NCBI GenBank assembly: GCA_038993745.2
Contig: CP160630.1
Location: forward strand, 1,240,001 to 1,304,000
Source of the DNA: Aliivibrio fischeri
GTDB taxonomy: Bacteria; Pseudomonadota; Gammaproteobacteria; Enterobacterales; Vibrionaceae
Reading direction: 5' to 3'
Length of the DNA: 64,000 bases
Both the position numbers and the translations under genes were made by a program. A model generated the notes under the pieces. It had not been told where the DNA came from. It saw only the letters and a program-made list of their open reading frames with translations, and made no database searches. Below, in pieces: positions 1 through 50,072 of the stretch (positions are counted from its first letter, which is position 1; every line of letters begins with the position of its first letter).

Positions 1-565
1 AAATAATAGCTCCTCCTTTTTTTGAATCGTTAACATCAACTAAATTTTTTAAAGGTCCCTCTGTAGTAGGAATCGCATCACTTAGTTTCATAATATGAAT
101 TTGAGACTCTGATGAAAGTTGCGAAACCATTTTTTTAGCAATGGTATAACTTCCATGAGGGCATCCATCATCAACCGGATACAAAGTCCAGCTAACATTA
201 GTACCTTTTGTTATCCAATTTAATTGGTCTATTTTAGTAAGTAACGAATTTTCACCATTTGGGTTATGTTTTGATTTTTTATTTAATCGATGATGTTCTC
301 CCCACATAGCAAAGACAACTCCTACACTTAGCGGTGTCGATATATTTAATATTAATCGGCGAGACTCAACTAATTTAACAGCTAGTCTAAACATTAATGG
401 AGCAGACTCGGCATCAACAAAATTGTTAAATTCAGAAATCGATATATGTTCAAAAGAAATAAGCTTATCTGCCAATAATAATAATTTATTCTGATCTTTT
501 TCACAGGTTAGATCAAACGTGTTATCTGAATTAGAAATAATATCTGAAATGATTTTTCTATCCAT
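1..565 (-). CDS. putative GT-A-fold glycosyltransferase, N-terminal part (cut by window edge)
   Basis: An open frame runs leftward from ATG at 565 to the window edge without a stop, giving about 188 residues beginning MDRKIISDIISNSDN. A GGAAG ribosome site lies about 10 bases upstream of the ATG. There is no signal peptide. Residues about 80-150 hold a hydrophobic strand, an MWGEHHRLN stretch and then a YPVDDGCPHGS segment. The hydrophobic strand followed by a DDG motif resembles the nucleotide-sugar-binding face of GT-A glycosyltransferases. The catalytic C-terminal half is outside the window, so substrate and family cannot be set. It is divergent from the phosphatase gene at 746, next to other glycan genes, which fits a polysaccharide role. 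Function is inferred from one motif only. Confidence 0.5.
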   Translation of the reverse strand, partial: MDRKIISDIISNSDNTFDLTCEKDQNKLLLLADKLISFEHISISEFNNFVDAESAPLMFRLAVKLVESRRLILNISTPLSVGVVFAMWGEHHRLNKKSKHNPNGENSLLTKIDQLNWITKGTNVSWTLYPVDDGCPHGSYTIAKKMVSQLSSESQIHIMKLSDAIPTTEGPLKNLVDVNDSKKGGAII

Positions 566-745: not shown

Positions 746-1999
746 ATGGAATACATTTTAGTTGTAGATGATGACCCCGTCAGTCTTTTATTTATGTCCT
801 CACTACTAAAACGTTGTGGTTATCAGGCTATATCCGCTAAAAATGGACTTGAAGCCATGATTATTTTACAAGATAACCCTCAAATACAATTTGTATTAAG
901 TGACTGGATAATGCCAGAAATGGATGGCATTGAATTATGTAAACGATTGAAAGAAATAGCATTTGATCGCTATATTTTCTTTGTTTTATTATCAGGTAAA
1001 AATGACCAGCACTCTATAATTAACGGAATAAACGCTGGTGCAGATGATTTTATTGTTAAAGGTACTGATGCTAAAGAGCTAGAAGCTCGTGTAAAAGCAG
1101 GCTTTCGCACACTAGAACTACACAATAAAATAATCGAAAAAAACCAAGAATTGGACTCAGCTTACGCAACAATACGCAAAGATCTTGATTCTGCTGGCGA
1201 TCTTATACGTCAATTATTACCAACCCAAACCAACTTTATTGGCGTGGAATTAAATTATATTTCCATACCCAGTGCACAAATTGGAGGAGATATGTTGGGA
1301 TACATGCAGTTGGATCCTGATCATCTCGCTTTTTATCTTTTTGATGTCGCAGGACACGGTGTGTCATCTGCATTAATGTCTTTTTCAGTTCAACAAAGTT
1401 TATCTGTCATTGACGGACCATCATCAATAGTAAAAGACACTCAAAATCGAATTATTCCTCCAGAAGAAGTGATTAATAAACTTAATAAACTCTATATCAG
1501 TGACGATAAGATCCAACTTTATTTCACCATGATTTATGCCGTACTAAATGTCAAAACTGGCGTAATACATTACTGTTCAGCAGGCCATCCTCCGCTAGTT
1601 TGGCTACACAATGTTACGAAAAAAGCTGAGTTAATTGGTCATGAGAACTTTGTTGTTGGTGCTTTTGATTTTGTTGATTACCAATCATCGCAAATACAAC
1701 TAGAACCAAACGATAAAATCTGGTTGTACTCAGATGGAATAACTGAGGCGGAAAACAAACCAAAAACGAAACAATTTACCGAAAATGGGCTTAGAAAAGC
1801 CATTATGGACATTCACAATCACCCAACCCATTTACAAACTGAACTGCTCGTTAATCGAGTAAGAACTTGGCAAGAATCAAACTTATTTGATGATGATGTT
1901 AGTGTTCTTGCTGTTGAGTGGAAAGGCTATTCAAAACAAGAGGATGACTCATGCAATACGAAATTAACAACCAAGGTAAATGCACAGTTTTTCAGATAA
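746..1999 (+). CDS. response regulator with C-terminal SpoIIE-type PP2C phosphatase
   Basis: The start is placed at ATG 746 because AAAGGA lies five bases before it; an in-frame ATG at 713 has no such site. Residues 1-125 are a receiver with the acidic pair VDDD, phospho-acceptor Asp53 in LSDWIMPEMDG and Lys in FIVKG. A short helical linker follows, then a PP2C/SpoIIE phosphatase domain (about 175-395) with metal-binding GGDM, FDVAGHG and DDDVSVLAVEW. The family dephosphorylates STAS anti-sigma antagonists, and the STAS gene comes next. It resembles SypE without the N-terminal kinase domain. The frame overlaps the STAS gene by 49 bases. A stop (TGA 1945-1947) in the adjacent frame, just before the STAS ATG, suggests one missing base near 1920-1926 and a true end at 1947. 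Confidence 0.85.
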   Translation: MEYILVVDDDPVSLLFMSSLLKRCGYQAISAKNGLEAMIILQDNPQIQFVLSDWIMPEMDGIELCKRLKEIAFDRYIFFVLLSGKNDQHSIINGINAGADDFIVKGTDAKELEARVKAGFRTLELHNKIIEKNQELDSAYATIRKDLDSAGDLIRQLLPTQTNFIGVELNYISIPSAQIGGDMLGYMQLDPDHLAFYLFDVAGHGVSSALMSFSVQQSLSVIDGPSSIVKDTQNRIIPPEEVINKLNKLYISDDKIQLYFTMIYAVLNVKTGVIHYCSAGHPPLVWLHNVTKKAELIGHENFVVGAFDFVDYQSSQIQLEPNDKIWLYSDGITEAENKPKTKQFTENGLRKAIMDIHNHPTHLQTELLVNRVRTWQESNLFDDDVSVLAVEWKGYSKQEDDSCNTKLTTKVNAQFFR

Positions 2000-2283
2000 A
2001 TGAAGAACGATTTGATGCAAAATTAGCACCTCAATTTCGTAAAGAAGCCGAGGAACTATTAAGCCAAATAGGTGACCATCTCATTCTTGATCTTGGCAGT
2101 GTCAAATTCATGGATAGCAGTGGGCTTGGTGCTATTATGGGCGTATATAAATTATGTAGAGGAAAAACCGTTAGTGTCGTTCACCTTCAAAAGCCAGTTG
2201 AAGATTTATTAAAGCTAACCAGAATGAATAGACTTATTCCCAACTATTCAACCCTAGAAGATGCAATGCTAACGTCAGCATAA
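1951..2283 (+). CDS. STAS-domain anti-sigma factor antagonist (SypA/SpoIIAA-like)
   Basis: This 110-residue single-domain protein fits the STAS family in length. The signature FMDSSGLGAIMG puts the expected phospho-serine at Ser56, the same position as in SypA of this window, so it is probably a paralogue of SypA. In partner switching, a HATPase kinase phosphorylates this serine and a PP2C phosphatase removes the phosphate; both enzymes are encoded beside it (phosphatase 746, kinase 3457). AAGAGGA upstream serves as the ribosome site. The output partner is unknown. It could regulate the glycan genes nearby or the sigma factor at 12601, but no sequence evidence decides this. Confidence 0.88.
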   Translation: MQYEINNQGKCTVFQINEERFDAKLAPQFRKEAEELLSQIGDHLILDLGSVKFMDSSGLGAIMGVYKLCRGKTVSVVHLQKPVEDLLKLTRMNRLIPNYSTLEDAMLTSA

Positions 2284-2296
2284 TAAAGGAACGATT

Positions 2297-3441
2297 ATGA
2301 AAGGAATGATTTTAGCCGCAGGTAAAGGCACACGAGTAAAACCAATAACTCACACAATACCAAAACCAATGATCCCGATTTTAGGTAAACCAGTAATGGA
2401 ATCTATGATCGAACTTTTTGTTAAACACAACATAAATAAGATCATGGTAAACACAAGTCATTTATCTGAAGTTATTGAAGGATACTTCAGAGATGGTCAT
2501 CATTTCAATGCACAGTTATCTTACTCCTACGAAGGTGAAATCATTGACGGTGAATTCAAAAGTAAGACATTAGGTTCCGCAGGTGGAATGCAAAAGATTC
2601 AACAATTTTCAGGATTTTTTGATGATACTTTTGTCGTGGTATGTGGTGATGCTTGGATTGATTTAGATTTAACAAAAGCAATCGAACATCACAAAGAAAA
2701 AGGGGTATAGCAACTATTGTAACAAAAGCCGTTCTCACAGAAGATATTCATAAATATGGTATTGTTGTATCAAATGAACACGGCTTAATTACGAACTTCC
2801 AAGAAAAACCAACCGCCAATGAAGCTTTATCAAACCAAGCTAATACAGGTATCTATATTTTTGAACCTGCTATCTTTGATTTTATACCTACAGAAGGTGA
2901 ATACGATATCGGCAGTGAATTATTTCCTTTATTAGTTGAAAAAAATATTCCTTTTTATTCTGTAAATATGGATTTCCAATGGTTAGATGTTGGTAATATT
3001 ACTGATATTTGGGATGTTACAAATGATATTCTGAATGGAAAAGTTAATGGTTATCCTATCCCAGGGACTCAGATCAAAGCTGGAGTCTGGGTTGGGATTA
3101 ATACCGTTGTTGATTTTGAACATTGCAATATAACTCCTCCAGTTGTTATTTCTAGTGGCTGCCATATTAAAAATGGAGCAACAATAGAAGGTCCAACAGT
3201 CATAAGTGCAAATTGTATCGTTGATTCAGAAGCTATCATTCGCAATTCATTAATATATGACTACATTCATATCCGTGATTTCATGTTGCTTGATCAAAAA
3301 ACGGTTTTTGATAACTATTGCATTGATAGAGATGGAAACAGTGATTGCTTTGCCAAAATGACAAAGGAGAGCGTTTCTTCAGTCATGAAAGATGCTTTAT
3401 CTGATTTATCAACTTTTACACAAAGCACAACAGAAAAGTAA
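2297..3441 (+). CDS. sugar-1-phosphate nucleotidyltransferase, frameshifted as sequenced
   Basis: The N-terminal Rossmann-type nucleotidyltransferase domain has the nucleotide-binding signature LAAGKGTRVKPIT and KPMIPILGKP, and later a GDAWIDLD metal-site segment. The C-terminal third (about 260-345) is a left-handed beta-helix of isoleucine-rich hexapeptide turns. Such enzymes make NDP-sugars such as GDP-mannose or UDP/dTDP-glucose; the exact sugar cannot be read. The frame stops at 2710 after HHKEKGV. Continuing in the adjacent frame gives IATIVTKAVLTED and then an unbroken reading to 3441. One G missing from the run at 2702-2705 explains the break; restored length is 381 residues. Its place between the STAS and kinase genes suggests it supplies precursor to a glycan controlled by this module. 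Confidence 0.85.
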
Positions 3442-3456
3442 TAAAGGAAAGCAAAC

Positions 3457-3900
3457 ATGGTTAATGCTATTTTTTCTAACACTTATCTCAGCTCTCTTGA
3501 AGCTTCTCGAACGGTATCTAATGACATAAGAGAATATTGGGGAGCATTAAACATTAGTGAAGATATTATTAATGAAGCAGAGCTATGTTTAGTTGAAATG
3601 GTAAATAATACATATGAACATGCTTACCTCAATCAAGAAGGTTCTTTGATTGAGGTAAAGTCATATCTACAAACAGAAAATATCTTATTAATTGAGATAT
3701 CAGATTATGGATATGCTCTAAACACAAATGGATTAGCTCAACAAATCCCTAACGATTTCATTACTCCAGAAAAAGATAAACCAGAGACATGGCTAACATC
3801 AGGCCGTGGTTTTTTAATCGTCGAGCAATTAATGGACAGCATTATTTATGAGAATAAAGATGGTAAAAATACATTTTACTTAAGCAAGCGACTAAGCTAA
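3457..3900 (+). CDS. HATPase_c anti-sigma/serine kinase (RsbW/SpoIIAB-like)
   Basis: This 147-residue protein is a single GHKL ATPase domain. The N-box is seen in AELCLVEMVNNTYEHAY, the G1 box in ISDYGYAL and a glycine-rich lid in SGRGFLIVEQLMD. Family members phosphorylate a STAS antagonist on serine and may sequester a sigma factor or other target. It is the last gene of the four-gene group and is similar in layout to the N-terminal kinase domain of SypE, here as a separate protein. GGAAAGC before the ATG is a plausible ribosome site. It ends four bases from the end of the convergent gene at 3905, with no terminator between. Confidence 0.85.
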   Translation: MVNAIFSNTYLSSLEASRTVSNDIREYWGALNISEDIINEAELCLVEMVNNTYEHAYLNQEGSLIEVKSYLQTENILLIEISDYGYALNTNGLAQQIPNDFITPEKDKPETWLTSGRGFLIVEQLMDSIIYENKDGKNTFYLSKRLS

Positions 3901-3904
3901 AAAA

Positions 3905-4837
3905 CTATTTATTTTCCTCTTCAGTCATCATAGGAGTAAAACTTCTTCTTTGCAGTACCTCTACTCCACTCTTACCTGAATTGCCTATATTAGCTTTATG
4001 TATTGGATTGTATTCTGATTCAGGGGCTTCTTTTTGATTTTCTTCTACCGACTTTAAATCCTTTATTTCTACATTTCGATAGTTAAACTCTTCATCTGGA
4101 GTAATTATCACTATTTGTTCGGATTTATTTTTACGTGGATTATCTTGAGGGTAAATATCGGTAGGCTCAATCTCTGCGGATTCAGTACGAGGAGTAAAAC
4201 TTTGACGCGGTGTAAAAGAGCGATTTAATCCAGTTAACTTACCTTTTTCAACCGGTTTCATTGATTTTGATGAATAATAATTTGGTACATCAACTGGAAG
4301 ATTTTTTGGGGTCGAGTTATTCGCTTTCAGGCCTAATTTAGGTCCTTTGAATACGAAAAGTTGTAATTTTTCTTCCCAAACTTGCAAAATAGCCAACTCT
4401 CGCTGCCACTCAGAATCAAGAGAGACGCCAATATCAGTAGTTGTCAATTGTGTTGATAATTGCGTATTTATTTGTTCATATCGTCGATGTAATGCTTTTT
4501 GTAATTGAACCCACTCAGTGCCACCAGTGAGTAAATAGCGAGTACTATTTGCCCAATATTCATATGCTTTTATATCATTATATTTATTTGCTTCTATTGC
4601 CGCTAATGCTTCTGATAACCCTGCATATTGCCACATCGCCTGAGAACCTAGTTTTGATTCTGAAGCAATAATTTGATTTGTTAATCTATGCCAATAATCA
4701 GCCGCTCGTTTATCTCTAGAAGTATTCGATAACATCGTCCCTTTACTATAAATCGATAGATTAAAATCAACGACCTGAGCTTCAGCCCGAAAGAGAAAAA
4801 AACAACTAAATAACATAAAAAAACGCATCGTCTTCAT
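3905..4837 (-). CDS. secreted/periplasmic protein of unknown function with SFTPR repeats
   Basis: I do not recognise a family. The start is taken as ATG 4837, which overlaps the stop of the upstream gene as ATGA (translational coupling); an in-frame ATG at 4858 would lengthen it by seven residues. It begins with a signal peptide (KTMRFFMLFSCFFLFRAEA). A helical region with many Trp and Gln follows (about 30-160), and then a low-complexity, Pro/Ser/Lys-rich C-terminal half containing SFTPR twice in tandem and a third SFTPM near the end. It is the last gene of the DUF3131/GT2 group, so a periplasmic accessory role in glycan export or modification is possible. Confidence 0.6.
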   Translation of the reverse strand: MKTMRFFMLFSCFFLFRAEAQVVDFNLSIYSKGTMLSNTSRDKRAADYWHRLTNQIIASESKLGSQAMWQYAGLSEALAAIEANKYNDIKAYEYWANSTRYLLTGGTEWVQLQKALHRRYEQINTQLSTQLTTTDIGVSLDSEWQRELAILQVWEEKLQLFVFKGPKLGLKANNSTPKNLPVDVPNYYSSKSMKPVEKGKLTGLNRSFTPRQSFTPRTESAEIEPTDIYPQDNPRKNKSEQIVIITPDEEFNYRNVEIKDLKSVEENQKEAPESEYNPIHKANIGNSGKSGVEVLQRRSFTPMMTEEENK

Positions 4838-6216
4838 CGAAAAGTCTCCACTAAACAATGTCCAGGATGTGAAAATCGAGATTTGAATTGAACATCACGA
4901 TACTCTTTTGATTTTTCTGGTTGGTATAGTTTCCCTTTAGTTTTATAAAGTAAAGCTTCTAAAACACCGGCATTAGTCTGTAAGGAAATACTTTTTTCAT
5001 AACTACTGTTTAATTCATAGCGTCCCTCATACCAGCCTCTTTCAGGGTCATATAACTCTTGTACTAATACCATTAAACGATCGGTATAATCAGATTTCCA
5101 TAAAGCCCACATCTGAAAAGCAACTCGTGTTGAAATTAACGCTAGTTCATCATATGAAGTACCATCTTCGGCTAAAGTTATCCAAGGTGTCCCTAAGGCG
5201 TAAATAGCGTCATAAACGAAATAAGGCTCACCAGATACGATATGTTCCCCTCTTGCTGTATATATTCGTTCATGCTCCCATCTAGCCTCTTGAATTCGAT
5301 AGATTGAATCAGCCATAGCTGACATCACCTCATCCGTATGTGTTGCATCACTTGATGAGTCATCTGAAATTTTATCCCAATTAAATTCTAATCCTAAACG
5401 CAAATATGGTGTGCTATAAACAGGGCGTAAAACATCAAAAATGCGCGGATCTCGACCATCAAAAATAAAATCAATACCATACATAGTTGCGACGTTATAA
5501 GGATCTATTCGCATGGCTTTTTGGGGGACGATCTGCCAATCAAGATAACCATATGATGTATACTCTTCTACACCCAATCGTCCCTCTTTATATCTCGCAA
5601 CATTTCCTTGATAGACACTTGCACCAAACAGTTCTCCCTCCTCATTTACAAGCTCACAAAAATTCCATTTAAGTACTGCCTTATCAATATATTCTATGAA
5701 TTGAGGATTATATTGCTTAACAATAGCAAGAACGATCAACAGTCGACCAATATCAATAGAAGACCATCCAATATCATTCGGCTGATTTCCATAGTCCACC
5801 ATTTGTCCTGTCTGAGTGCTATACACTTTATTAGGAATTTGACCAATACTTAAAGGCATATCATTTAAAAAAGTGAGAACCAATGACAACCGTTCGTCGT
5901 GCTCTTTACTCGTAATAAATTTAAATTCACGAGCAGCAGTTAATGCCATAAGATAATCAGCAATACCAGACATATTTGTGGTTGGATAATTATCAATACT
6001 ATTAACAAGGCCTGTCGTTAACTGAGTATTATTTTCCATATATACCCAAGCAAGGCGAGCCCATTCAAGCTCACCTTCTGTTAATTCGCCATATCTTCCT
6101 TGCCTAATTGCTTGTGATTGACTTATCGAGTTCACTCCATCTTGAACTCCTTGATATAAAACTCCACAAGATGACAATAAGAAGCTTATTAAAATAACAA
6201 CTACGCCCTTTAGCAT
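4834..6216 (-). CDS. DUF3131 lipoprotein (paralogue 1)
   Basis: This 460-residue protein has a lipoprotein signal peptide with lipobox LSSC at about residue 16. The rest is a DUF3131-type domain, recognised by conserved blocks shared with its two neighbours: NNTQLTTGLVNSIDNYP, the LPNKVY-type turn (IPNKVYSTQTG), VDYGNQPNDIGWSSIDIGRLL and GEPYFVYDAIYALG. The alternation of Trp/Tyr-rich helices resembles an alpha/alpha-toroid like that of glycan-acting enzymes, but a catalytic role is not proven. DUF3131 genes often lie next to glycosyltransferase genes, as here. It shares an operon with the two paralogues and the GT2, and its stop overlaps the start of the gene at 4837. Confidence 0.75.
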   Translation of the reverse strand: MLKGVVVILISFLLSSCGVLYQGVQDGVNSISQSQAIRQGRYGELTEGELEWARLAWVYMENNTQLTTGLVNSIDNYPTTNMSGIADYLMALTAAREFKFITSKEHDERLSLVLTFLNDMPLSIGQIPNKVYSTQTGQMVDYGNQPNDIGWSSIDIGRLLIVLAIVKQYNPQFIEYIDKAVLKWNFCELVNEEGELFGASVYQGNVARYKEGRLGVEEYTSYGYLDWQIVPQKAMRIDPYNVATMYGIDFIFDGRDPRIFDVLRPVYSTPYLRLGLEFNWDKISDDSSSDATHTDEVMSAMADSIYRIQEARWEHERIYTARGEHIVSGEPYFVYDAIYALGTPWITLAEDGTSYDELALISTRVAFQMWALWKSDYTDRLMVLVQELYDPERGWYEGRYELNSSYEKSISLQTNAGVLEALLYKTKGKLYQPEKSKEYRDVQFKSRFSHPGHCLVETFR

Positions 6217-6235
6217 CCATTTCCCTTCAATAAAA

Positions 6236-7642
6236 CTATAAACGTGAAGGTTTCATTGGTTTTCTTGGCAAACATTGTCCTTCATAACCAAATGGCGATT
6301 CTAGCGCTTTCTCCCATAGACTTGGAACGGCGTTTTCTTTATATGTTAATAATTTACCTTGCTCTTTAAAAAGTAAGATTTCTAACGTGATCCCATTGTT
6401 ATTTGAAGTAAAGGTGTTAATTAAACCTGTTCCGTTTTCAAACATACCTTCATAGAAACCTTTTTTTCTATCGTATAGATTAGAAACATGATCGAATAAT
6501 AAATCAGTATATTCTGTATCCCACAGCGCCCACATCCCCATCGCACCTTTAACTGCAACTGCTGAGTATTGTGGTAAAAACTCACCATTTTCCGAAATAG
6601 TATTCCAAGCAAATCCATCTGTATAAATAGTGTCATAAACAAAATAAGGGGCACCAGCTAACTGATGTTCTGTTCTTGCGGTAATAATCCCTGTTTGCTT
6701 ATAACGCTCTTCTTGTACTCGATATATATTTAGAGCAAATTCTGCCATCCAACCATTCGAATAACTTGTATCATGAGGACTCTTATCTGTGGTTAAGTCC
6801 CATCCAAGTTCTATCGCATCCAATACATAGCTTTCTGTTACTACATAACTGTGAGCCTTCAGCTTCCTTGGGTCTCTTGTATCGTAAGGAATGTCATAAC
6901 CATATAAATTAATGGTTCCATATGGCTCAGGCATTGATGCTTGTGTCGTATCAAATCCCCACAGTTGAAAACCTTTTGCTGCATATTCTTCGTAACCTAA
7001 TCGACCTTCTTGAAGGTATTGCACAGGTTTTCCATTCTCTAATAACGCCCCAAACATGGTTCCATTTTCATCTACAACATTACAAAAATTCCAACGTAAA
7101 ACAACCGAATCAATGCTCGTTGCAAACTCTGGATATCTATTTTTCAATATATGAAGCCAAATAAGTAAACGCCCTAAATCAAGAGCAGAGTAACCAATTT
7201 CGCCAGGTTGATTACCATAATCCACTTTTGCTCCATTCTGAGTGTTATATGCTTTATTTGGTAATTCACCTTTAAATAAATCCAATGTATTTAGTGTTGT
7301 GAGAAATTTGATTAAGCGAATATCAAACTCCTCTTTTTCTATAATTCCAAGCTCATAAGCACTCGTCATCCCAGCTAAATACGAAGCAGCATCCCACCAT
7401 GTTACTGAAGGATAATTATTTACCGCATTGACCAACCCCGTAGATTCTTGATAATTATTTTCAAAATAAGTCCAGGCTATACGTGCCATATCCATTTCTT
7501 TTTCGGTTAACTTACCTTGGCGAGCCATTGGAGTGACCCAATGATCTTTTTTTTCTACTATATCTTCAGAAAAATGGTTGTATTTATTTCCGCAGCCCGC
7601 CAAAACTAAACCCAGCAAACCTATTGAGATATAACGCATCAT
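6236..7642 (-). CDS. DUF3131 lipoprotein (paralogue 2)
   Basis: This 468-residue protein has a signal peptide with lipobox LAGC near residue 17, preceded by a strong AAGGAGG ribosome site. A second ATG lies one codon inside the first. The DUF3131 blocks are all present: NNYQESTGLVNAVNNYPS, LPNKAYNTQNG, VDYGNQPGEIGYSALDLGRLL and GAPYFVYDTIYTDG. It is the closest in layout to the downstream paralogue at 4834, with a 19-base gap between them. Tandem copies suggest duplication followed by divergence. It probably sits on the outer-membrane inner face, acting on or binding a glycan made by the GT2 at 8975. Activity is unknown. Confidence 0.75.
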   Translation of the reverse strand: MMRYISIGLLGLVLAGCGNKYNHFSEDIVEKKDHWVTPMARQGKLTEKEMDMARIAWTYFENNYQESTGLVNAVNNYPSVTWWDAASYLAGMTSAYELGIIEKEEFDIRLIKFLTTLNTLDLFKGELPNKAYNTQNGAKVDYGNQPGEIGYSALDLGRLLIWLHILKNRYPEFATSIDSVVLRWNFCNVVDENGTMFGALLENGKPVQYLQEGRLGYEEYAAKGFQLWGFDTTQASMPEPYGTINLYGYDIPYDTRDPRKLKAHSYVVTESYVLDAIELGWDLTTDKSPHDTSYSNGWMAEFALNIYRVQEERYKQTGIITARTEHQLAGAPYFVYDTIYTDGFAWNTISENGEFLPQYSAVAVKGAMGMWALWDTEYTDLLFDHVSNLYDRKKGFYEGMFENGTGLINTFTSNNNGITLEILLFKEQGKLLTYKENAVPSLWEKALESPFGYEGQCLPRKPMKPSRL

Positions 7643-7666
7643 TATCCTCCTTAATCTTGCTACGAT

Positions 7667-9033
7667 TTACTTAGCGCCAACGCTTAAAAGTGGGCCATTT
7701 TCGATATACGCAAGAGACTCAAGTACTATCCCATTTGTGTTAGCTGTTATCGCTTTATTCTTTGTACCATCAGATTCATAACGTCCTGAAAACCATCCTT
7801 TCTTTTCAGAGTAGAGTGTATTCACTTCATTAATTAATATATTGGTATAATCTGTTTTATATAACGCATACCAACCAAAAGCAGCTTTGGTAGATAGTGA
7901 TTTGAATTCTGATGCATCTTCACCTGTATCTGTAATTGCGTTCCACTCTTTACCATCAGAAAAAACGGTGTTGTAAACAAAATATGGTGCCTGATCTAAA
8001 TTATCCTCACTAACCGCAGTCACAATTCCCGTATCTCTATAACGGTTCTCTTGAGCCTGATAAACACGATGAGCAAAAATTTTAGATACACTATCAGCAC
8101 CAAACTCTAACCCATCTAATATATATGACTCACTAACGACATAGTTATGTGCATGATATTTTGCAGGATCACGCAAGTCCGTTGGTATCTCAACACCACT
8201 AATGGTTTTAAATTCTAGATAATCGATATATTTCATCGCATTAAATACATCTCGCCCCATTAAGGACATGGATTTAGATGCGTATTCTTCATACCCAATA
8301 CGACCTTCTTGTACTAATTCAAATCCATCAGATGTAGCAGAAAGGCGGGCTCCATATAAATAACCCTCTTTGATCATGTCACCTACATGCCATGCATTAA
8401 GAACATTATTTACCGATTTATTAAATTCTGGATACTGCCAAATCAAAATATTAAATGGTACTAAGATTCGTCCAATATCAATAGCCGACCAACCAATACC
8501 ATTCGGAGTCGGACTATTACTATAATCCACCATTTCTAATGTAATCGTGTTATATGCTTTATTTGGTAATCGATTATTGACTAAAGGCAGTCGAGCAAGT
8601 GTATGTAGCGCCTTTTCCATACGAATATTAAATACATCTTCAGTAATTACATTCAACTTTTCAGCTGAAATTAGCCCATTAAATACGATGCCGTATCCCA
8701 CATGGTGGTAGATGGGTAACCATCAACTGAATTTACAAGTCCTGTATTTTCTTGATAATTATTTTCGAAATACTTCCATGCGGTATTCGCCCATTGATAC
8801 TCTTCTTGAGTTAATATTCGACTAGGTTTGAGTGGGATTTTTTCTTCATGTTCAAAAGTAATATTCCCTAAAACCTGTGACGTCTCACGAGTTTCAATTG
8901 CAAATGAAATAAACAACGCAGTCGCTAACCCTAGTATAAATACGATATGGTGGCGAGCATTTATCAATGCCTTTCTAAATTCCATATTTGACTTCCTCTT
9001 GCCCTTGTTCTGATTGATTTTGTTGCTCATCAT
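7667..9033 (-). CDS. DUF3131 membrane-anchored protein (paralogue 3), frameshifted as sequenced
   Basis: The N-terminus lacks a lipobox. It has one membrane segment (about residues 24-44, IVFILGLATALFISFAI), which should leave the DUF3131 domain in the periplasm. The first frame stops at TASYLMG. The adjacent frame continues LISAEKLNVITEDVFNIRM, which lines up with SYLAGMTSAYELGIIEKEEF of paralogue 2. Restoring one G in the run at 8675-8677 gives 455 residues. Conserved blocks NNYQENTGLVNSVDGYPS, LPNKAYNT and APYFVYNTVFSDG are visible. The start overlaps the end of the GT2 gene, so the two are probably translationally coupled. Confidence 0.75.
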
Positions 9034-10839
9034 CGTTTGATTTAGGACTCCAAAATGCCGAAGCTATCATTCCCCACATAGCCAGCATATTGTTAATAAT
9101 CCAAAATGTATTTAGTACTAATCCACCAAATGAATAACTTCCATAAGCACCAGTTGAATATCCCGTCCATGCGTAAACAACGCTAAACAAACTCAAACTA
9201 AACACAGCGATTTGTGGGATCACCAACTTAACAAAGTTACCACTCTGCCTCTCTTTCGGTGTTGTAGGAAAACTAATTTTCTTCCCTCTAAGAACAGTCC
9301 ATAGCGCTTTAAAATTAACTGGAAAGAAAGATAAAAAATTTGTTTTACCTTTATAACCAGCCACTCCCATGTCCCAACCATCATTGCTAATTCAGCCGTC
9401 AAAACAAAAGGTAGGAAATGCAAATAAAAGGTCACATCATAAGCGCTAACTGGAGCAATACTTGTTAAGAAATAAACAATAGGACAAAGTAAAAAAATGA
9501 TGTTCCAAATTGCCGATAAATTGGACCAGAAACTCGCTCCATACATAAGTTTTTGTTTAAGACTCATCCCTTTTCTAAACAATGGATTATCATTCATGAA
9601 AATATCAATCGAGCCGCCTGAATATTTAAACCGTTGTACTGTCCACGTCTGTAAATCTTGTGGGGACAACATTTTACTTTCGACTTGAGGATGTAAAACA
9701 GACCGCCAATTACGCTCTGAATCTGAATGCAAAACTAAAGAAGTATATAAATCTTCAGACACGTGGAACTTATACGGAGTGAATTCAGTATCAATAAAGA
9801 TCTCTTGTTTCAAATTATCCGAAACATCTTTATCAACGACCTTTTCCTTTGTCATTTTTCTAATCTGTTTTTCTATTTCAGATTGTTCTTTTATGATTTG
9901 CTCACTATAACTACGAAGCGCAGCTTCCATGACCGCTTCTCGTCGATGTATGGAGCCAGCTCCACAGCAAAACGATGCATTAGCCCAATTTCTACGACGT
10001 TGTATTACGTCATAAAACATTTGTGGATCATTAACAAAAGGATCTTCACCTAATGTCACCGGCCCATATATTTTTTCTATGCCTCGACCAATACATGCAG
10101 ACCAATTTCCCAATTTACGCTGCATAAATTGCGGTAGTCTTTCACCTTCAGGTATATCAAAGAACCATTGAGGAGTTTGTACCCATGCAACATCTGGATC
10201 TCTAAAGTACCCTAAGGTGTGTTCTAAAATCGTTGGAAATGGTCTTGTGTCTGCATCACAGATAACAACAAAATCACCGTAGGTTTGTTCCATTGCGTTT
10301 CGTAAATTTCCGGCTTTAAATCCTGTATTACCTTCTCGAGTAATATATCCGATATTCATTTCTTCAGCTAATTTAGCCATTTCTTCACGTTTACCATCAT
10401 CAAGAATAAAGATTTTAATATCAATATCATGAGGATACGTTATCTTTTGAGCATCAAGTATACTCAATTTTACCAATTCAGGTTCTTCATCATAAGAAGG
10501 GAAAAAAACATCCACACTAATTGGTCTATTTTCATCAGTTTCAAGAACACATTCTTTTATTTTATATGGAGCGGGCTTTCTTGGTTCATCCTGAGTTTTC
10601 CAAAGATTGAAAGTAAATAAGACCGAGCCAATAAAAGCACACGATTCTGCAAAAGCTAAAGGCAAAGAAAACCATAATGCATCGTAGTTAAGAGCAAAGC
10701 TCCAACGCCACCATAAATACCAGATACCCAAGGTTAAATTACATGTTGCCAAATATTGATAAGTTAATTCACGAAAATGACTGTGAGGGACAGGTTCGGG
10801 AGGGCTTCTATCTTCATATTTACTAAAGTAAAAATCCAT
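8975..10839 (-). CDS. membrane family 2 glycosyltransferase (cellulose-synthase-like), frameshifted as sequenced
   Basis: Membrane segments lie near the N-terminus (about 25-75). A cytosolic GT2 domain follows with FFPSYDEEPE, the ILDDG motif, ICDADTRPFP (DxD), TPQWF and a C-terminal VQRFKYSGG that replaces the usual QxxRW. Several membrane helices follow. Family members polymerise a sugar from an NDP donor while moving the chain across the inner membrane. The first frame goes astray after VGTWE, and the adjacent frame continues GVAGYKGKTNFLSFFPVNF. One G missing from the run at 9366-9368 accounts for it; restored length is 621 residues. No PilZ domain is evident. It heads the operon with the DUF3131 genes, and GGAG precedes the start. 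The product glycan is unknown. Confidence 0.82.
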
Positions 10840-10975
10840 TTATTTTCTCCAAGATGAATATGGTAACCAGCATTAAAAAATCGAAATAGCTAATACAAAC
10901 AACTTAGGATAGAAAAGAGCAAAAATGTAATTAAAAAAATGTTTTTAACTCAAACAAAGTATCTTTTTTATATAT

Positions 10976-12556
10976 CTAAGCAATAGCTGATAATTTTTCT
11001 CTTTCAATTAACTTTAATGACCAATTTATAATATTATCAATAGATTGAGGTTTACTGATGTAATACCCTTGTACGTAATCACAACCTAGCTCTTGCAACT
11101 CGCAGAATAAGTGTTCATCTTCAACACCTTCAGCAACCACATTACACCCTAAGCTATGAGCAAGATAAATCGTTGACGCTACAATTGCATAATCACTATT
11201 GCCAATGGCCATATTTCGAATAAAAGATTGATCAATTTTAATTTGATTAAATGCCAAGACTCTTAATAAAGATAAAGAGGAATATCCTGTACCAAAATCA
11301 TCAATGCTGATGTAAAAACCTAACTCTGATAATTTAGATAACATTAGATAGGCGGCATCAACATCTGACATTAAAGCACTTTCTGTTATTTCTAAGATCA
11401 TACTAGATGGCTCAAGATGCTTATTGGCTACCATATCAAACAATTGGTTATACAAATCATCGTCATATAAATCTAACGTTGATATATTTAGATGAACTTG
11501 GAAATTTAAATTGTCATTTTTTAATCTAATAATATCTGAAGTAACTTGGCTCACAACCCATTTCGTTATCCCTTTGATATAATTGTTTTTTTCTGCAATC
11601 GAAATAAATTTATCAGGAGGAATCATGCTTCCGTCTTTTTGTGGCCAACGAATCAATGCTTCATAACCATGTAGAGTTTTATCCATGCTATTGACGATTG
11701 GTTGATAGTACAGCTCAAATTCTTTATTCGGAATCGCATGAACTAATTTACTTAAGATATCAACTTCATCATTAATAGATTGTGCATAATTTTCTGAATA
11801 AAAGTCTATAACCAAACCTAATTTCTTAGCCTTATAACAAGCAATATCAACTCGTTTAAGCATCTCATCTACGCTATCTATATCATCAGAGTAAATCACA
11901 TTGCCTATAATTGGTTGAAGTATGAAATTTTTCCCTTTCATTTTAATTGGTTGGATGAGCAATTCATATACATCTAAAGCTATACTATTTATTTTATCTT
12001 TATTCGTTAAATTACCAATAATCAATATCTCATTATTATCATAAAAAATTGATACATTAGGATCATTACGATGTTTTTTAACGATTAAAGATGCATAGGA
12101 TAATATACTATTAAATGTTCTATCAGAAGAGTATTCAATCAAAGCTCTATGATTCTGAATTTTAATTTTAGTAAGGTTAAATGGAATGCGATTTTCAATT
12201 CTACCTTCAATCACAGCTCGGTAAACTCTTGATTTATTAGTGATAACATTGCTATGATCTTGTGTTTGAACATTCTGATTTATTTTATTTGTCACTAATA
12301 TACAGACAAATGCTAATTGTGTTAAAAATGTAACACTAATTAGCATTGATAAGTCTATATAATTTTTAACCCCTTTTTCCAAAAGAGAGTTTTCAATATA
12401 AATAAATCCTATAAAATAAATAAGAAGCAATATAGATATTAATATCTTCTTTGATAACTCATTATTTTTTATAATATCATAAATACCTTTAGATAATAAA
12501 ACCAAAGATACAACATTGGCAAACAACAATAATTTTAAGATAACGTCATTATCCAT
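10976..12556 (-). CDS. membrane-bound EAL-domain protein (probable c-di-GMP phosphodiesterase) with degenerate GGDEF
   Basis: Residues 1-95 form about three to four membrane helices. The middle (about 130-265) has the length and fold pattern of a GGDEF domain, but the active-site motif is replaced by YDNNE, so cyclase activity is unlikely. The C-terminal EAL domain (about 270-515) keeps the catalytic set: EALIRW, LNIST, EITES, DDFGTGYSS, KIDQSF and AEGVED. The family cleaves c-di-GMP. It lies 44 bases downstream of rpoQ on the same strand with no terminator between, so it is likely cotranscribed. This would link the RpoQ regulon to c-di-GMP removal, but the regulatory link is inference. Confidence 0.87.
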   Translation of the reverse strand: MDNDVILKLLLFANVVSLVLLSKGIYDIIKNNELSKKILISILLLIYFIGFIYIENSLLEKGVKNYIDLSMLISVTFLTQLAFVCILVTNKINQNVQTQDHSNVITNKSRVYRAVIEGRIENRIPFNLTKIKIQNHRALIEYSSDRTFNSILSYASLIVKKHRNDPNVSIFYDNNEILIIGNLTNKDKINSIALDVYELLIQPIKMKGKNFILQPIIGNVIYSDDIDSVDEMLKRVDIACYKAKKLGLVIDFYSENYAQSINDEVDILSKLVHAIPNKEFELYYQPIVNSMDKTLHGYEALIRWPQKDGSMIPPDKFISIAEKNNYIKGITKWVVSQVTSDIIRLKNDNLNFQVHLNISTLDLYDDDLYNQLFDMVANKHLEPSSMILEITESALMSDVDAAYLMLSKLSELGFYISIDDFGTGYSSLSLLRVLAFNQIKIDQSFIRNMAIGNSDYAIVASTIYLAHSLGCNVVAEGVEDEHLFCELQELGCDYVQGYYISKPQSIDNIINWSLKLIEREKLSAIA

Positions 12557-12600
12557 ACAAATACAACCTCAACATATCTATGACATTAAAAAGAATAGTA

Positions 12601-13485
12601 CTACCCTAAAGCTATTTCTAAATCCAACTTATTTTTCTTAAAGATAGTATTCAATTTAATGAGTGTTTCTGATTGTATTTGTCTTACTCTTTCCTTTGAT
12701 AAATCCAAATCTCTACCTAAGTCTTCTAGCGTCTTAACTTTACATCCAAACAACCCATATCTATTAATAATAATTTCTTTTTCTCTATAATTTAGTGAAT
12801 CAATCCAAGAAGATAAATTCTTATCTAAATTATCTTGAGATAAAGAACTGTCAGGTTCCAAAGCTCTATCTTTCGAAGAAAGCTCAAGAAATTTAGGTGG
12901 TGTTTCATCACTACTGGCTGAATGGCAAGTAAGTTGACTTGGTATTAAGCTTATAATTTTATTTACTTTAATTTGTTCTTCTTCACAATAAGAAGAAATA
13001 TCCCTGATCGAAGGTTCACGCTTTAACGATTTAGATAATTCACGAGCAGCTCTCAGGTAAATATTTAACTCTTTTGTTATATGAACAGGAAGACGAACCG
13101 TTCTAGAATGATTGAAAAGCGCACTCTCAATCGATTCTCTAATCCACCATACCGCATAGGTTGAAAAACGATAGCCTAATTCTGGGTTAAATTTTTCTAT
13201 CGCCTTAATCAAACCTAAATTGCCTTCTTCGATAATATCTAAAATGGCTAAATCTGTTTGATTCCTTGTTCGATATTTATTAGCAACTTTAACAACAAGT
13301 CTTAAATTAGATTCGATTAATTTATTCCTCGCCGATATATCCCCTTTTTTATAAAGTCTGCTATAAATCAATTCCTCTTTTGCTGTAAGTAATTGATAAC
13401 GATTTATCTCTTTCAAATATATTGAATAAGAATCTTTTAGATCCTGTTCTTCACAGGCTTTCATATCTAACTTTGCATAAGCCAT
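12601..13485 (-). CDS. rpoQ: RpoS-like alternative sigma factor RpoQ
   Basis: This 294-residue group 2 sigma factor has region 1.2/2.1 (SIYLKEINRYQLLTAKEE), region 2.2-2.4 (DIIEEGNLGLIKAIEKF and FSTYAVWWIRESIE), region 3 (about 140-220) and region 4 with the helix-turn-helix LEDLGRDLDLSKERVRQIQ. It lacks the extended N-terminus of RpoD. Its position upstream of syp matches rpoQ of V. fischeri, a sigma factor positively controlled by the quorum regulator LitR and affecting motility, chitinase and luminescence. The name rests on family plus synteny. AGGA lies seven bases before the ATG. The intergenic region holds a LitR-like motif and a hairpin. Confidence 0.87.
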   Translation of the reverse strand: MAYAKLDMKACEEQDLKDSYSIYLKEINRYQLLTAKEELIYSRLYKKGDISARNKLIESNLRLVVKVANKYRTRNQTDLAILDIIEEGNLGLIKAIEKFNPELGYRFSTYAVWWIRESIESALFNHSRTVRLPVHITKELNIYLRAARELSKSLKREPSIRDISSYCEEEQIKVNKIISLIPSQLTCHSASSDETPPKFLELSSKDRALEPDSSLSQDNLDKNLSSWIDSLNYREKEIIINRYGLFGCKVKTLEDLGRDLDLSKERVRQIQSETLIKLNTIFKKNKLDLEIALG

Positions 13486-13525
13486 AACATATCCTTGTAC
13501 CTAGCTGTTTTATATTTATTGTTAT

Positions 13526-13543
13526 CAACTGTTTTTTCAGTTG
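13526..13543. other. perfect 6-bp inverted repeat in the rpoQ leader/promoter
   Basis: CAACTG, six T, CAGTTG. It is 41 bases upstream of the rpoQ start. The arms are short and there is no trailing T run on the rpoQ strand, so it is more likely an operator or leader stem than a terminator. Confidence 0.4.
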
Positions 13544-13805
13544 TGAATAAACTATGGTACAAACCCTAACAAGCGGCAATACCGTAAACTATTTTTCATT
13601 AAAAAAAAGAAAGAATTGTTGCCACGATCACAACTAATTAATATTCATTCTCAGAATTAAGACGACAATATATTGACACTGACTTATTTACAAGATAGAC
13701 AATAAAAACATCACCATAAATAGAAACGATAAAATAACATTTACATTCAAACGTCTTTTAAGATAGAAACTTACTGTTTGTCTTAGAGTCTTTAAAATAA
13801 ACTAA

Positions 13806-13827
13806 TAATTGATATTTATAACAATAA
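13806..13827. promoter_or_regulatory. candidate LitR/LuxR-family binding site
   Basis: Read on the minus strand, this 22-base stretch starts TTATTG and ends ATATCAATTA. By my alignment it matches the V. harveyi LuxR-type palindrome (half TTATTGATAAA) at 17 of 22 positions. LitR is known to activate rpoQ in V. fischeri. The site is about 320 bases from rpoQ and about 100 bases from the kinase start, so it could serve either. AT-richness makes chance matches likely. Confidence 0.4.
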
Positions 13828-13928
13828 ATTTCAGATAAAAACAAAAGATAATTATCTGTTTTTCGATTTTTTTATCCTATGCTTTGATCATAGGTCTGCA
13901 TTTGGTCTCTTAGAAACAAGGATTGTTT

Positions 13929-16520: not shown

Positions 16521-16529
16521 GGATAACGC

Positions 16530-18230
16530 ATGACTTCGGCTTTTAATCCAACATCGGGTACTCTCAATCTGTCAAACTTCGATATACTTATCGTCGATGA
16601 CTGCCAAATATCGTCCATGTATTTATTTCAGTTAGTTAAACAACTTGGTTTTACACAAATAGATAAAGCTTACTCATATCAAGATGCCATAAAATGCTGT
16701 GCAAAAAAAAGATACGCATTACTCTTCATTGATTTTCATCTTGAACAAGCGATTAATGGCTCAGAATTACACGATCTACTTAAGGAAAAAGGCTTTATAT
16801 CTCCTTATGCAAGAGTTATTACGGTATCAGGAGATAACACCACACAAACGGTTATTGGCACGATTTCAAAAGGACAGGGAGACTATCTATGTAAACCAAT
16901 AAATAAAGCCACGCTGCAAAACAAAATACAAAATGCCTTTTCTGAATATCAGCTTTTTAAGAAGCTGTATAAACTTTTAGAACAACATAAATATGACGAA
17001 TTATTATCCACAGCAGTATCAATAGCTGCTCATAAAAACATTGTTGAACTCGACATATTTCTTATTGATTTCCTCTATGAGCACGATAAAAACCTTCTGT
17101 TAAAACTGACACAGGAAACAACGTTTAGTAATAGAAAAAACTACATTCTGGCGCGTTTAAAAGTACAAAATGAAAAAAAATTATTGCATCCACTTAACTT
17201 AATACAAGCAACAACACAACTTTGCGAAAAACATCCATTATTCGTTCAAGCGTTTGATTTTTTAAGCTTATTACAAATAAACATTCAACATTATGAAGAA
17301 TCATTAAACTCAGCTTTAAATGCGTTAGCCCTAACAACAAGATCTCCACATCGATCCTTATCCGTATTAAAGCTATCTTTAATATGTAATGACAAAAGTG
17401 AATTTCTAAAAGCAAGCCACCTACTTGCAAGTCATTTACCTATTTCTTCTCCTAGCTGGTGTTCGTATCTATCTGAATGTTTAAGTTATTTTAACAGTTA
17501 TATTCAACAAACCACATCAGAAATAGATAAGAAACAATTAATTTTAGAACAAAAAAACTTCGTACGTCGTTGTGAATACCGTCTAACTGAAAAACAAAAA
17601 GTGCAACTAAATATTCTATACAATTATTCAATAAGCAAACGCTTAATTGAAGAGGGGCAAATAGCAAAAGCAAAAAGATTAACCTTAAAAGCCACCACCT
17701 CTTTTTATGATAACCTGCACCAACTCAACACGATTGTATTGATCGAATTAATGTATTTACTTTCTTTTTTTGGTGAGCTTTGGCTTATGACCAAGGTCAA
17801 TACTGTATTGAAAACAAAAACAAATTTAGATAACTATTGCCGAGATTGTCTTAATATATTAAAAAATGATTCTGAGCTAATTCAATCTATAGCTCAATTA
17901 TCCATTACGATAGAAAAACTTTCTGATTCTAAAACTGAACAACCGACATTTGATCAGCTCTCGAACGAGCTACAGCGCCATCCCTACTCCTCTGAATTGT
18001 GTATTAATTTTTTAGAAAAAATTATTAAATTAAGCCAAGATCTCCCTAATAATTTAAACAAAACAATAGATTTAATTAACGAAATGCCACTTTCCTTAGA
18101 ACTAAACCTACGCCGAGATGCGATATTAAAACAATTACATGCTCATATAGATATTGATAATGAATTATCATTGCACGTATCTCAATCTCCTTCGACATTG
18201 AATATTCCTTCATTTATTGCAAACAGATAA
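16530..18230 (+). CDS. response regulator with long helical (TPR-like) output region
   Basis: The 566-residue product begins nine bases after the kinase stop, with AAGGATA as ribosome site. Residues 20-145 are a receiver: IVDDCQ, acceptor Asp in LLFIDFH and Lys in YLCKPI. The rest (about 150-560) is almost all amphipathic helices with paired patterns such as LYEHDKNLLLKL and FDFLSLLQINIQHYEESLNSALNAL, consistent with TPR-like repeats. There is no DNA-binding, GGDEF, EAL or PP2C domain. The layout recalls VieB of V. cholerae, which acts by protein contact. The partner is unknown; the upstream kinase is the obvious phosphodonor. Confidence 0.82.
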   Translation: MTSAFNPTSGTLNLSNFDILIVDDCQISSMYLFQLVKQLGFTQIDKAYSYQDAIKCCAKKRYALLFIDFHLEQAINGSELHDLLKEKGFISPYARVITVSGDNTTQTVIGTISKGQGDYLCKPINKATLQNKIQNAFSEYQLFKKLYKLLEQHKYDELLSTAVSIAAHKNIVELDIFLIDFLYEHDKNLLLKLTQETTFSNRKNYILARLKVQNEKKLLHPLNLIQATTQLCEKHPLFVQAFDFLSLLQINIQHYEESLNSALNALALTTRSPHRSLSVLKLSLICNDKSEFLKASHLLASHLPISSPSWCSYLSECLSYFNSYIQQTTSEIDKKQLILEQKNFVRRCEYRLTEKQKVQLNILYNYSISKRLIEEGQIAKAKRLTLKATTSFYDNLHQLNTIVLIELMYLLSFFGELWLMTKVNTVLKTKTNLDNYCRDCLNILKNDSELIQSIAQLSITIEKLSDSKTEQPTFDQLSNELQRHPYSSELCINFLEKIIKLSQDLPNNLNKTIDLINEMPLSLELNLRRDAILKQLHAHIDIDNELSLHVSQSPSTLNIPSFIANR

Positions 18231-50071: not shown

Positions 50072-50072
50072 T

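What the first reader, a model, noticed from the sequence alone, without database searches (positions are those of the whole stretch)
746..3900. Second partner-switching module, a split version of SypE/SypA, beside its own glycan genes
A receiver-PP2C phosphatase, a STAS protein with Ser at 56 (as in SypA), and a stand-alone HATPase kinase are encoded together, with a sugar nucleotidyltransferase between them. SypE carries kinase, receiver and phosphatase in one chain; here kinase and phosphatase are separate. The convergent operon at 3905-10839 encodes a GT2 and DUF3131 proteins. I infer a regulated glycan system parallel to syp, perhaps with cross-talk at the STAS proteins. I know of no description of it.
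Basis: partly seen in the sequence, partly recalled or inferred. Interest (0 to 1): 0.75.

Follow-up and report, generated by a model that had tools for sequence, protein, structure and literature searches.

The report
Partner-switch controlled beta-glucan gene cluster
The bacterium carries a three-protein on/off switch packed together with genes that appear to build, trim and export a glucose polymer, and the same package recurs in a number of marine vibrios and some distant bacteria, so it is probably a real but uncharacterised way of switching a polymer-making machine.

Summary
Observation confirmed: 746-3900 encodes a receiver-PP2C phosphatase, a STAS protein (Ser56/Ser57), a UDP-glucose-pyrophosphorylase-like enzyme and an RsbW-like kinase; 3905-10839 a cellulose-synthase-like GT2 and three DUF3131 proteins. 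The nucleotidyltransferase, GT2 and first DUF3131 frames are broken in this assembly but intact in relatives. The set is conserved: 41 of 44 Vibrionaceae genomes with this GT2 (of 329 searched) have the kinase. The trio also adjoins GT2-DUF3131 in Pantoea and in 5 (plus one split) of 12 loci of an unnamed family outside the class; in another such family a STAS gene precedes GT2 in 5 of 5 loci with upstream DNA (directly in 4). No RpoQ-like or GGDEF/EAL gene is linked in 37 of 40 fetched Vibrionaceae loci. Best reading: a dedicated RsbU/V/W-type switch whose STAS output acts on the glucan machine. It is not a split SypE/SypA (24-39% local identity). DUF3131 has the fold of beta-1,2-glucanases/GH189; GH16 lichenase-type and GH9 genes in some clusters suggest a beta-glucan of undetermined linkage. 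Closest known: S. meliloti Bgr/BgsA. Against: three genomes have the trio without GT2; 8 of 20 outside loci lack switch genes. Phosphorylation and target untested.

The parts
1..565 (-). 5' part of a GT2-like gene of about 421 aa, divergent from the switch operon and cut by the window edge
   Evidence: L133 17301-18566 = window -700 to 565, 62% identical to L117:18649-19938, which has a weak Glycos_transf_2 match, 5.5e-6; hit in 20 of 40 relatives' loci
746..1999 (+). Receiver-PP2C (RsbU/SpoIIE-type) phosphatase, input of the switch
   Evidence: Pfam PF00072 and PF07228; phospho-acceptor and metal-binding Asp invariant in 14 aligned sequences
1951..2283 (+). STAS protein (RsbV/SpoIIAA-type), overlaps the phosphatase gene by 49 bases
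   Evidence: Pfam PF01740; D55-S56-S57-G58 invariant in 14; PDB profile hits to anti-sigma factor antagonists
2297..3441 (+). Nucleotidyltransferase with hexapeptide C-terminus, UDP-glucose-pyrophosphorylase-like; reading frame interrupted near 2700 in this assembly
   Evidence: Two ORFs 2297-2710 and 2968-3441; one ORF in 40 of 40 relatives with the gene; intact relative L117:8852-9973 matches PDB 8x7s, UTP-glucose-1-phosphate uridylyltransferase, E 1.9e-121
3457..3900 (+). Stand-alone HATPase_c_2 serine kinase (RsbW/SpoIIAB-type)
   Evidence: Pfam PF13581 9.4e-18; profile hits to anti-sigma F factor (SpoIIAB) and RsbW structures, 3e-9 and 3e-7; N-box and SGRG invariant in 14
3905..4858 (-). 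Protein of 309-317 aa, probably secreted (signal-like N-terminus by eye), function unknown, last gene of the glycan operon
   Evidence: ORF; no Pfam match; homologue in 26 of 60 fetched loci, some others being cut short of it
4834..6216 (-). DUF3131 protein, third of three (lipoprotein-like N-terminus by eye)
   Evidence: PF11329 1.7e-100
6236..7642 (-). DUF3131 protein, second of three (lipoprotein-like N-terminus by eye)
7667..9033 (-). DUF3131 protein, first of three, with a hydrophobic N-terminus; frame broken in this assembly
   Evidence: ORFs 8671-9033 and 7667-8701; one 438-441 aa ORF in the 9 relatives' loci printed; pieces match A. sifiae 87-90%
8975..10839 (-). GT2 membrane glycosyltransferase, cellulose-synthase-like; frame broken in this assembly
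   Evidence: ORFs 9220-10839 and 8975-9370; one 616-633 aa ORF in 40 of 40 relatives; a very similar intact protein P0128 exists; relative L101 hits BcsA structures, 6.5e-36

Best explanation
It is a dedicated RsbU/RsbV/RsbW-type partner-switching module that governs an adjacent beta-glucan synthesis and export machine. Shown by sequence: the three switch proteins with intact motifs, their conserved linkage to GT2 + three DUF3131 genes, and the absence of a linked RpoQ-like sigma factor or GGDEF/EAL protein in most relatives. Inferred: a histidine kinase phosphorylates the receiver and sets the PP2C activity; the HATPase kinase phosphorylates the STAS protein at the DSSG serine pair and so turns it off; the phosphatase restores it. 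Inferred, less certain: unphosphorylated STAS is the output and acts on the glucan machine itself (GT2, or the UDP-glucose-forming enzyme encoded between STAS and kinase) rather than freeing a sigma factor. The DUF3131 proteins are probably periplasmic hydrolases or transglycosylases that trim or rearrange the chain; a strand-rich, probably outer-membrane, protein and an RTX protein encoded divergently may help export and anchor the matrix. Chain linkage is open: mixed beta-1,3/1,4 or beta-1,2-containing.
For: Linkage in Vibrionaceae: trio beside GT2 in 40 of 44 relatives' trio loci; 41 of 44 GT2 genomes, window included, have the kinase. Outside, of 20 GT2-DUF3131 loci with usable flanks: trio in 6 (Pantoea L134; L239-L243), trio split over two DUF3131 loci in 1 genome (L225 + L227), STAS only in 5, none in 8. 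STAS gene upstream of GT2 without a kinase or phosphatase gene on the stretch in 5 of 5 f200 loci with upstream DNA, directly in 4; in 4 of 5 the DSSG motif is altered: suggests STAS works at the synthase. No RpoQ-like and no GGDEF/EAL hit in 37 of 40 Vibrionaceae loci. Gene order STAS-NT-kinase, NT = UTP-glucose-1-phosphate uridylyltransferase-like. GT2 = BcsA-like. GH16 with EIDIEF, best PDB hits beta-glucanases of the 1,3-1,4 type; GH9 and GH2 genes in some clusters. DUF3131 fold = GH189/beta-1,2-glucanase.
Against: No biochemistry. Three Vibrionaceae genomes (L053, L062, L065) hold the trio with no GT2 near it and no GT2 hit anywhere, so the trio can serve something else. 8 of 20 outside GT2-DUF3131 loci and Vibrionaceae G132 have no switch gene nearby. 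G047 and G175 have no kinase hit anywhere in their assemblies, though their GT2 contigs end before the expected place. The f200 contigs are short (1.9-4.4 kb upstream of STAS or GT2) and those genomes were not searched for kinase or phosphatase genes, so 'STAS only' may be partial. Kinase matches in L242 and L243 are weak (1e-4, 2e-4). GT2-switch distance correlations (rho 0.73-0.77) do not discriminate: shared ancestry gives them too, and GT2 vs DUF3131b is only 0.57. Lichenase-type GH16 (19 of 40 loci within reach) and the beta-1,2-type DUF3131 fold point to different linkages.
Confidence: 0.6

Rival explanations
1. Classical output: the HATPase kinase is an anti-sigma factor, and the STAS protein frees a sigma factor (RpoQ here, RpoS or another elsewhere) that transcribes the glycan genes.
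For: Profile hits of the kinase and STAS are to anti-sigma factors and antagonists. rpoQ lies 8.7 kb from the kinase gene in the window (12601-13485) and in the fetched stretch of 3 other Aliivibrio genomes. Some gram-negative switches target sigma factors (recalled, e.g. CrsA of Shewanella oneidensis).
Against: No RpoQ-like gene in 37 of 40 Vibrionaceae cluster loci. STAS-only stretches show no kinase to act as anti-sigma factor (short contigs). Only rpoQ was used as query, so distant sigma families and unlinked sigma factors are not excluded.
Confidence: 0.2
2. Bgr-like output: STAS controls an unlinked diguanylate cyclase, and c-di-GMP activates the GT2, as in Sinorhizobium meliloti.
For: [quoted passage not shown] An EAL gene (pdeV by gene order in V. 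fischeri) is linked in Aliivibrio. A diguanylate cyclase gene is annotated near the putative bgsBA pair of S. meliloti pSymB (L135).
Against: GGDEF/EAL hits in only 3 of 40 Vibrionaceae loci, all Aliivibrio. GT2 about 25% identical to the S. meliloti enzyme; its QxxRW site reads QxxKY; no PilZ match in the Pfam scan of one GT2, though BgsA too binds c-di-GMP without PilZ (PMC5567048 passages). Unlinked cyclases are not excluded.
Confidence: 0.15
3. A split duplicate of SypE/SypA feeding into syp, with cross-talk at the STAS proteins.
For: Same protein families, same Ser56, both in one 64 kb window; SypA is the only other STAS hit of this genome in the profile search (E 5.9e-13).
Against: Low identity to SypA and SypE; own glycan genes; most relatives' clusters have no sypF/sypG/rpoQ-type gene within about 10 kb.
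Confidence: 0.05

Closest known systems
Sinorhizobium meliloti BgrU/BgrV/BgrW switch with BgsA mixed-linkage beta-glucan synthase
   Same: Split phosphatase/STAS-type/kinase switch controlling a GT2 beta-glucan synthase (Bgr: one passage of PMC7647112; BgsA: passages of PMC5567048; the primary paper on Bgr, Baena 2019, not held and not read)
   Different: There the output is the DGC BgrR, and c-di-GMP acts on the C-terminus of BgsA. The pSymB enzyme that I take for BgsA from its neighbouring adaptor gene (L135, not annotated as such) is about 25% identical to this GT2 and keeps QxxRW; its annotated neighbours within 6 kb include a DGC but no DUF3131 or switch gene
Vibrio fischeri SypE/SypA
   Same: Receiver, phosphatase and kinase functions acting on a STAS protein with Ser56, beside polysaccharide genes (PMC4517449 passages)
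   Different: One chain in SypE; distant sequences; different polysaccharide locus
Klebsiella pneumoniae 'block 3b' and Pantoea piersonii plasmid locus
   Same: Cellulose-synthase-like gene, three DUF3131, OpgC, hybrid kinase, anti-sigma factor and antagonist (Klebsiella: one passage of PMC12974863; Pantoea: L134)
   Different: OpgC and a hybrid kinase present, no nucleotidyltransferase hit in L134; switch genes divergent from the GT2 operon; listed, not studied, in that passage. Klebsiella DNA was not examined
Nostoc punctiforme HmpU/HmpV/HmpW
   Same: Split switch in a motility-and-polysaccharide locus; target of HmpV unknown (PMC8256260 passage)
   Different: Cyanobacterial locus, not compared by sequence
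SGL clan and GH189 (beta-1,2-glucanases; cyclisation domain of cyclic beta-1,2-glucan synthase; PMC12102758 passages)
   Different: 10-18% identity in the listed clan rows; linked to a GT2 and, in some clusters, lichenase-type GH16; activity unknown

Membership tests
RsbU/V/W-type partner-switching system | PP2C/SpoIIE phosphatase with metal-binding Asp residues | tested here: met
   PF07228 2.7e-37; GGD182, D200, D330, D383-D384 invariant in 14
RsbU/V/W-type partner-switching system | Single-domain STAS protein with DS[ST]G phosphorylation motif | tested here: met
RsbU/V/W-type partner-switching system | GHKL serine kinase of the RsbW/SpoIIAB type | tested here: met
   PF13581; SpoIIAB and RsbW structures by profile; motifs invariant
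RsbU/V/W-type partner-switching system | Phosphorylation-dependent exchange of binding partners and a defined target | not testable with these tools
   Needs biochemistry
SypE/SypA | Kinase, receiver and phosphatase in one chain | tested here: not met
   Separate genes at 746-1999 and 3457-3900
SypE/SypA | Orthology of STAS and phosphatase to SypA and SypE | tested here: not met
   39% over 54 aa and 24%; SypE and SypA are separate genes of the same window
S. meliloti Bgr/Bgs mixed-linkage glucan system | BgsA-type GT2 with QxxRW | tested here: not met
   About 25% identity; QR[FYL]KY in 11 of the 12 GT2 sequences aligned with the S. meliloti enzyme
S. meliloti Bgr/Bgs mixed-linkage glucan system | Diguanylate cyclase as STAS target | tested here: inconclusive
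   No GGDEF/EAL hit in 37 of 40 loci; unlinked ones not excluded
SGL clan / GH189 | (alpha/alpha)6 barrel fold of the clan | tested here: met
SGL clan / GH189 | Clan-defining Glu, Tyr and Phe and a catalytic pair | not tested
   No residue-level superposition was made

The most novel reading that the evidence does not exclude
A widespread, uncharacterised class of beta-glucan machine (GT2 with a QxxKY instead of QxxRW acceptor-site motif, plus GH189-like DUF3131 processing enzymes) is gated post-translationally by a STAS protein acting directly on the synthase, with neither sigma factor nor c-di-GMP; the STAS-only loci are the stripped-down form and the phosphatase and kinase are an added phospho-switch.
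Probability: 0.33. Interest if true: 0.78.

Novelty: new variant of a known kind. Interest (0 to 1): 0.6.

Why it matters
It adds a second, independent partner switch to the syp neighbourhood of Aliivibrio and shows that such a switch is a recurrent (not constant) companion of one family of glycosyltransferase in several bacterial groups. If STAS acts on the synthase, it would be a way of controlling a cellulose-like synthase without c-di-GMP or a sigma factor. It also gives DUF3131 a testable activity, and gives the Klebsiella 'block 3b' gene list a working hypothesis.

Tried and rejected
Rejected: 'split SypE/SypA' as origin. Not used as evidence of loss of function: the three broken frames. 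Overlapping same-strand ORF pairs are 1.7 per 20 kb in 10 stretches of this genome against 0.33 in 9 of A. sifiae, but the numbers of ORFs of at least 300 or 500 aa do not differ (7.8 vs 7.2; 2.6 vs 2.7 per 20 kb), and intact cluster loci of relatives (L040-L042) also score 2-4 on the overlap measure; so a general excess of broken frames is suggested, not shown, and sequencing error, decay and loss of this system cannot be told apart. Led nowhere: structure of the divergent 335-aa protein (pLDDT 56; 12 predicted strands, so 'outer-membrane barrel' is inference; not searched further); STAS profile in the class (12 of 369 genomes; apart from the window's STAS and SypA the hits were E 8e-20 or weaker and were not followed). 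DUF3131 in the class sample is rare: 12 of 369 genomes at E 0.001, full-length only in this genome and G464. Promoter and terminator scan at chance. DUF3131b vs PDB by single sequence: no real hit. Weak DUF3131 hits in proteins of about 1,800-2,970 aa are probably cyclic beta-glucan synthases (inference). Non-Vibrionaceae kinase hits: L126 is a 560-aa fused protein; L131 and L132 were not examined. Dropped from counts: 20 of the 65 kinase-positive genomes belong to a related phosphatase-plus-HATPase family; 16 were fetched and show no STAS hit, 4 (G127, G167, G179, G237) were not fetched and were classed by frame length only. L017 (3 kb contig of a 79% complete genome, no GT2 hit) was kept in the trio count. 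L230 (GT2 at a contig edge) was left out of the 20 outside loci. L244 has a STAS hit inside a 496-aa ORF, counted as 'none'. After rechecking, the novel case was lowered from 0.35 to 0.33 because one of the five f200 STAS genes is not directly upstream of GT2 and those contigs are short.
Full report
What is there. The gene order rpoQ-EAL with a divergent kinase-like ORF (12601-13485, 10976-12556, 13923-16520) matches rpoQ-pdeV and VF_A1016 of V. fischeri (passages of PMC12369385). Window 746-3900 encodes a receiver-PP2C phosphatase, a STAS protein, a nucleotidyltransferase and a HATPase_c_2 kinase; 3905-10839 on the other strand encodes GT2, three DUF3131 and one further protein. Key residues are invariant over 14 aligned sequences. 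The STAS serine at 56 is real and the neighbouring S57 is equally conserved; which of the two is phosphorylated here is not known.

Broken frames. The nucleotidyltransferase, GT2 and first DUF3131 genes are each split over two frames here. The first two are single ORFs in 40 of 40 relatives that have them, the third in the 9 relatives' loci printed. An intact 621-aa GT2 (P0128, source not named) is 99% identical to the window's C-terminal piece and 93% over 540 aa to the rest, which includes an out-of-frame tail. One measure suggests a general excess of broken frames in this genome, others do not, so I draw no conclusion about loss of function.

Conservation in Vibrionaceae. The kinase has a match in 65 of 329 genomes. 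I fetched 60 of the 64 other places: 44 carry phosphatase, STAS and kinase together; 16 carry a related phosphatase plus HATPase without a STAS hit. With the window, 45 genomes have the trio. GT2 lies beside it in 41; of the other 4, one (L017) is a 3 kb contig and three (L053, L062, L065) have none nearby; none of the 4 genomes has a GT2 hit. In the reverse direction GT2 occurs in 44 of 329 genomes; 41 have the kinase. G047, G175 and G132 have no kinase hit; the GT2 contigs of G047 and G175 end before the place where the switch genes would lie, and the G132 locus lacks them. In the 37 non-Aliivibrio loci GT2 and the trio run in one direction, typically phosphatase-STAS-nucleotidyltransferase-kinase-(GH2, GH9 in some)-GT2-DUF3131 x3; in the 4 Aliivibrio genomes GT2 onwards is turned round. 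L079 has the trio and GT2 without the nucleotidyltransferase. Named examples: A. sifiae, P. profundum, P. jeanii, V. fortis, V. barjaei, V. sinensis. STAS relatives are also named from Shewanella and Moritella, and GT2 relatives from Shewanella and Ferrimonas; their context was not examined.

Beyond Vibrionaceae. A Pantoea piersonii plasmid holds kinase, STAS and phosphatase divergent from GT2-DUF3131 x3, with OpgC, a hybrid-kinase-like response regulator and a sugar-binding-domain (GH2-like) protein (L134). [quoted passage not shown] In an unnamed family of the phylum outside the class (f216), 12 of 149 genomes have the GT2 at E 1e-100: the trio is adjacent in 5 (L239-L243, kinase match weak in L242 and L243), distributed over two DUF3131-bearing loci in 1 (L225, L227), absent in 6. 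In a second one (f200), 6 of 74 have the GT2; all 5 with upstream sequence held have a STAS gene upstream of GT2, directly in 4, with a 711-aa ORF between in L231, and no kinase or phosphatase hit on these short stretches. L223 (same class) and L232 (f216, from the phylum sample) have none. In total 6 trio, 1 split trio, 5 STAS-only and 8 none among 20 usable outside loci.

What the cluster makes. GT2 resembles BcsA, is about 25% identical to the S. meliloti pSymB enzyme that I take for BgsA, keeps the D, DxD and SED motifs but reads QR[FYL]KY where the S. meliloti enzyme and BcsA have QxxRW (11 of 12 sequences; L223 departs at several motifs). The nucleotidyltransferase matches a UTP-glucose-1-phosphate uridylyltransferase structure, so UDP-glucose is the likely donor. 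GH16 of the cluster matches lichenases and has EIDIEF, also in this genome's own copy. Within the fetched flanks GH16 is hit in 19, GH2 in 16 and GH9 in 11 of 40 loci. The DUF3131 model matches the cyclisation domain of cyclic beta-1,2-glucan synthase and beta-1,2-glucanases, with a weak sequence match. These pointers disagree on linkage, so I claim only a beta-glucan. A strand-rich 335-aa protein (38 of 40 loci) and an RTX protein (32 of 40) are encoded nearby; this genome has both upstream of the window, with GH16, a fourth DUF3131 and type-I-secretion-like genes.

How it probably works. Receiver input; PP2C and kinase set the phosphorylation state of STAS (inferred from family knowledge). 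The output is unlikely to be a linked sigma factor or c-di-GMP enzyme, because 37 of 40 Vibrionaceae loci have neither an RpoQ-like gene nor a GGDEF/EAL hit. The STAS-only loci, in 4 of 5 with an altered DSSG, suggest that STAS itself works on the synthase. The nucleotidyltransferase encoded between STAS and kinase is a second candidate target but is missing in L079 and not found in L134. Likely input kinases are the sypF-like proteins of 577-899 aa encoded beside the cluster in L134, L240, L242 and L243; among the 40 Vibrionaceae loci a sypF-type hit occurs only in L087.

Relation to known systems. By sequence it is an RsbU/V/W-type switch. It is not SypE/SypA in split form. It is closest in logic to S. 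meliloti BgrU/V/W-BgsA, of which I saw the switch only in one passage of PMC7647112 and the synthase in passages of PMC5567048, PMC9495663, PMC7997180 and PMC6821405. Searches for prior description, seen as listings only: DUF3131 (3 papers); partner-switching + STAS + glucan + response regulator (1); RpoQ + V. fischeri + syp (20 of 58 listed); partner-switching + Vibrio + STAS (11); lichenase + Vibrio + glucan (10 of 42 listed); anti-sigma factor antagonist + cellulose synthase + Photobacterium (8). No title or abstract start among them describes this system in Vibrio; the library holds open-licence papers only.

Noticed in passing
L133 (G000:C2:1222000-1241500), 5093-17000: The glycan cluster extends about 12 kb upstream of the window: GH16 (EIDIEF), a fourth DUF3131, type-I-secretion-like genes, a long RTX protein and a strand-rich protein; several frames look broken.
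   Followed up: partly
window 28714-28732, 61343-62646 and 47804-50749: Further genes look frame-broken or fused by eye: sypF separated from its HPt part, a DUF1254-like gene in two ORFs (recalled family name), and an ABC ATPase fused to its permease.
   Followed up: no
L081, L083-L086, L088-L098: A related family with receiver-PP2C and HATPase in one chain or as two neighbouring ORFs and no STAS hit nearby (16 loci fetched); natural fused and split forms of the same pair.
   Followed up: partly
L053, L062, L065: Trio phosphatase-STAS-kinase without glucan genes nearby; possible other target, useful as contrast.
   Followed up: partly
GT2 family: QxxRW of processive GT2 enzymes reads QxxKY in 11 of 12 members aligned (not L223); a possible clue to product specificity.
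   Followed up: partly
The DUF3131 profile hits, over its first ~90 positions, proteins of about 1,800-2,970 aa, probably cyclic beta-glucan synthases, linking DUF3131 to their cyclisation domain.
   Followed up: partly
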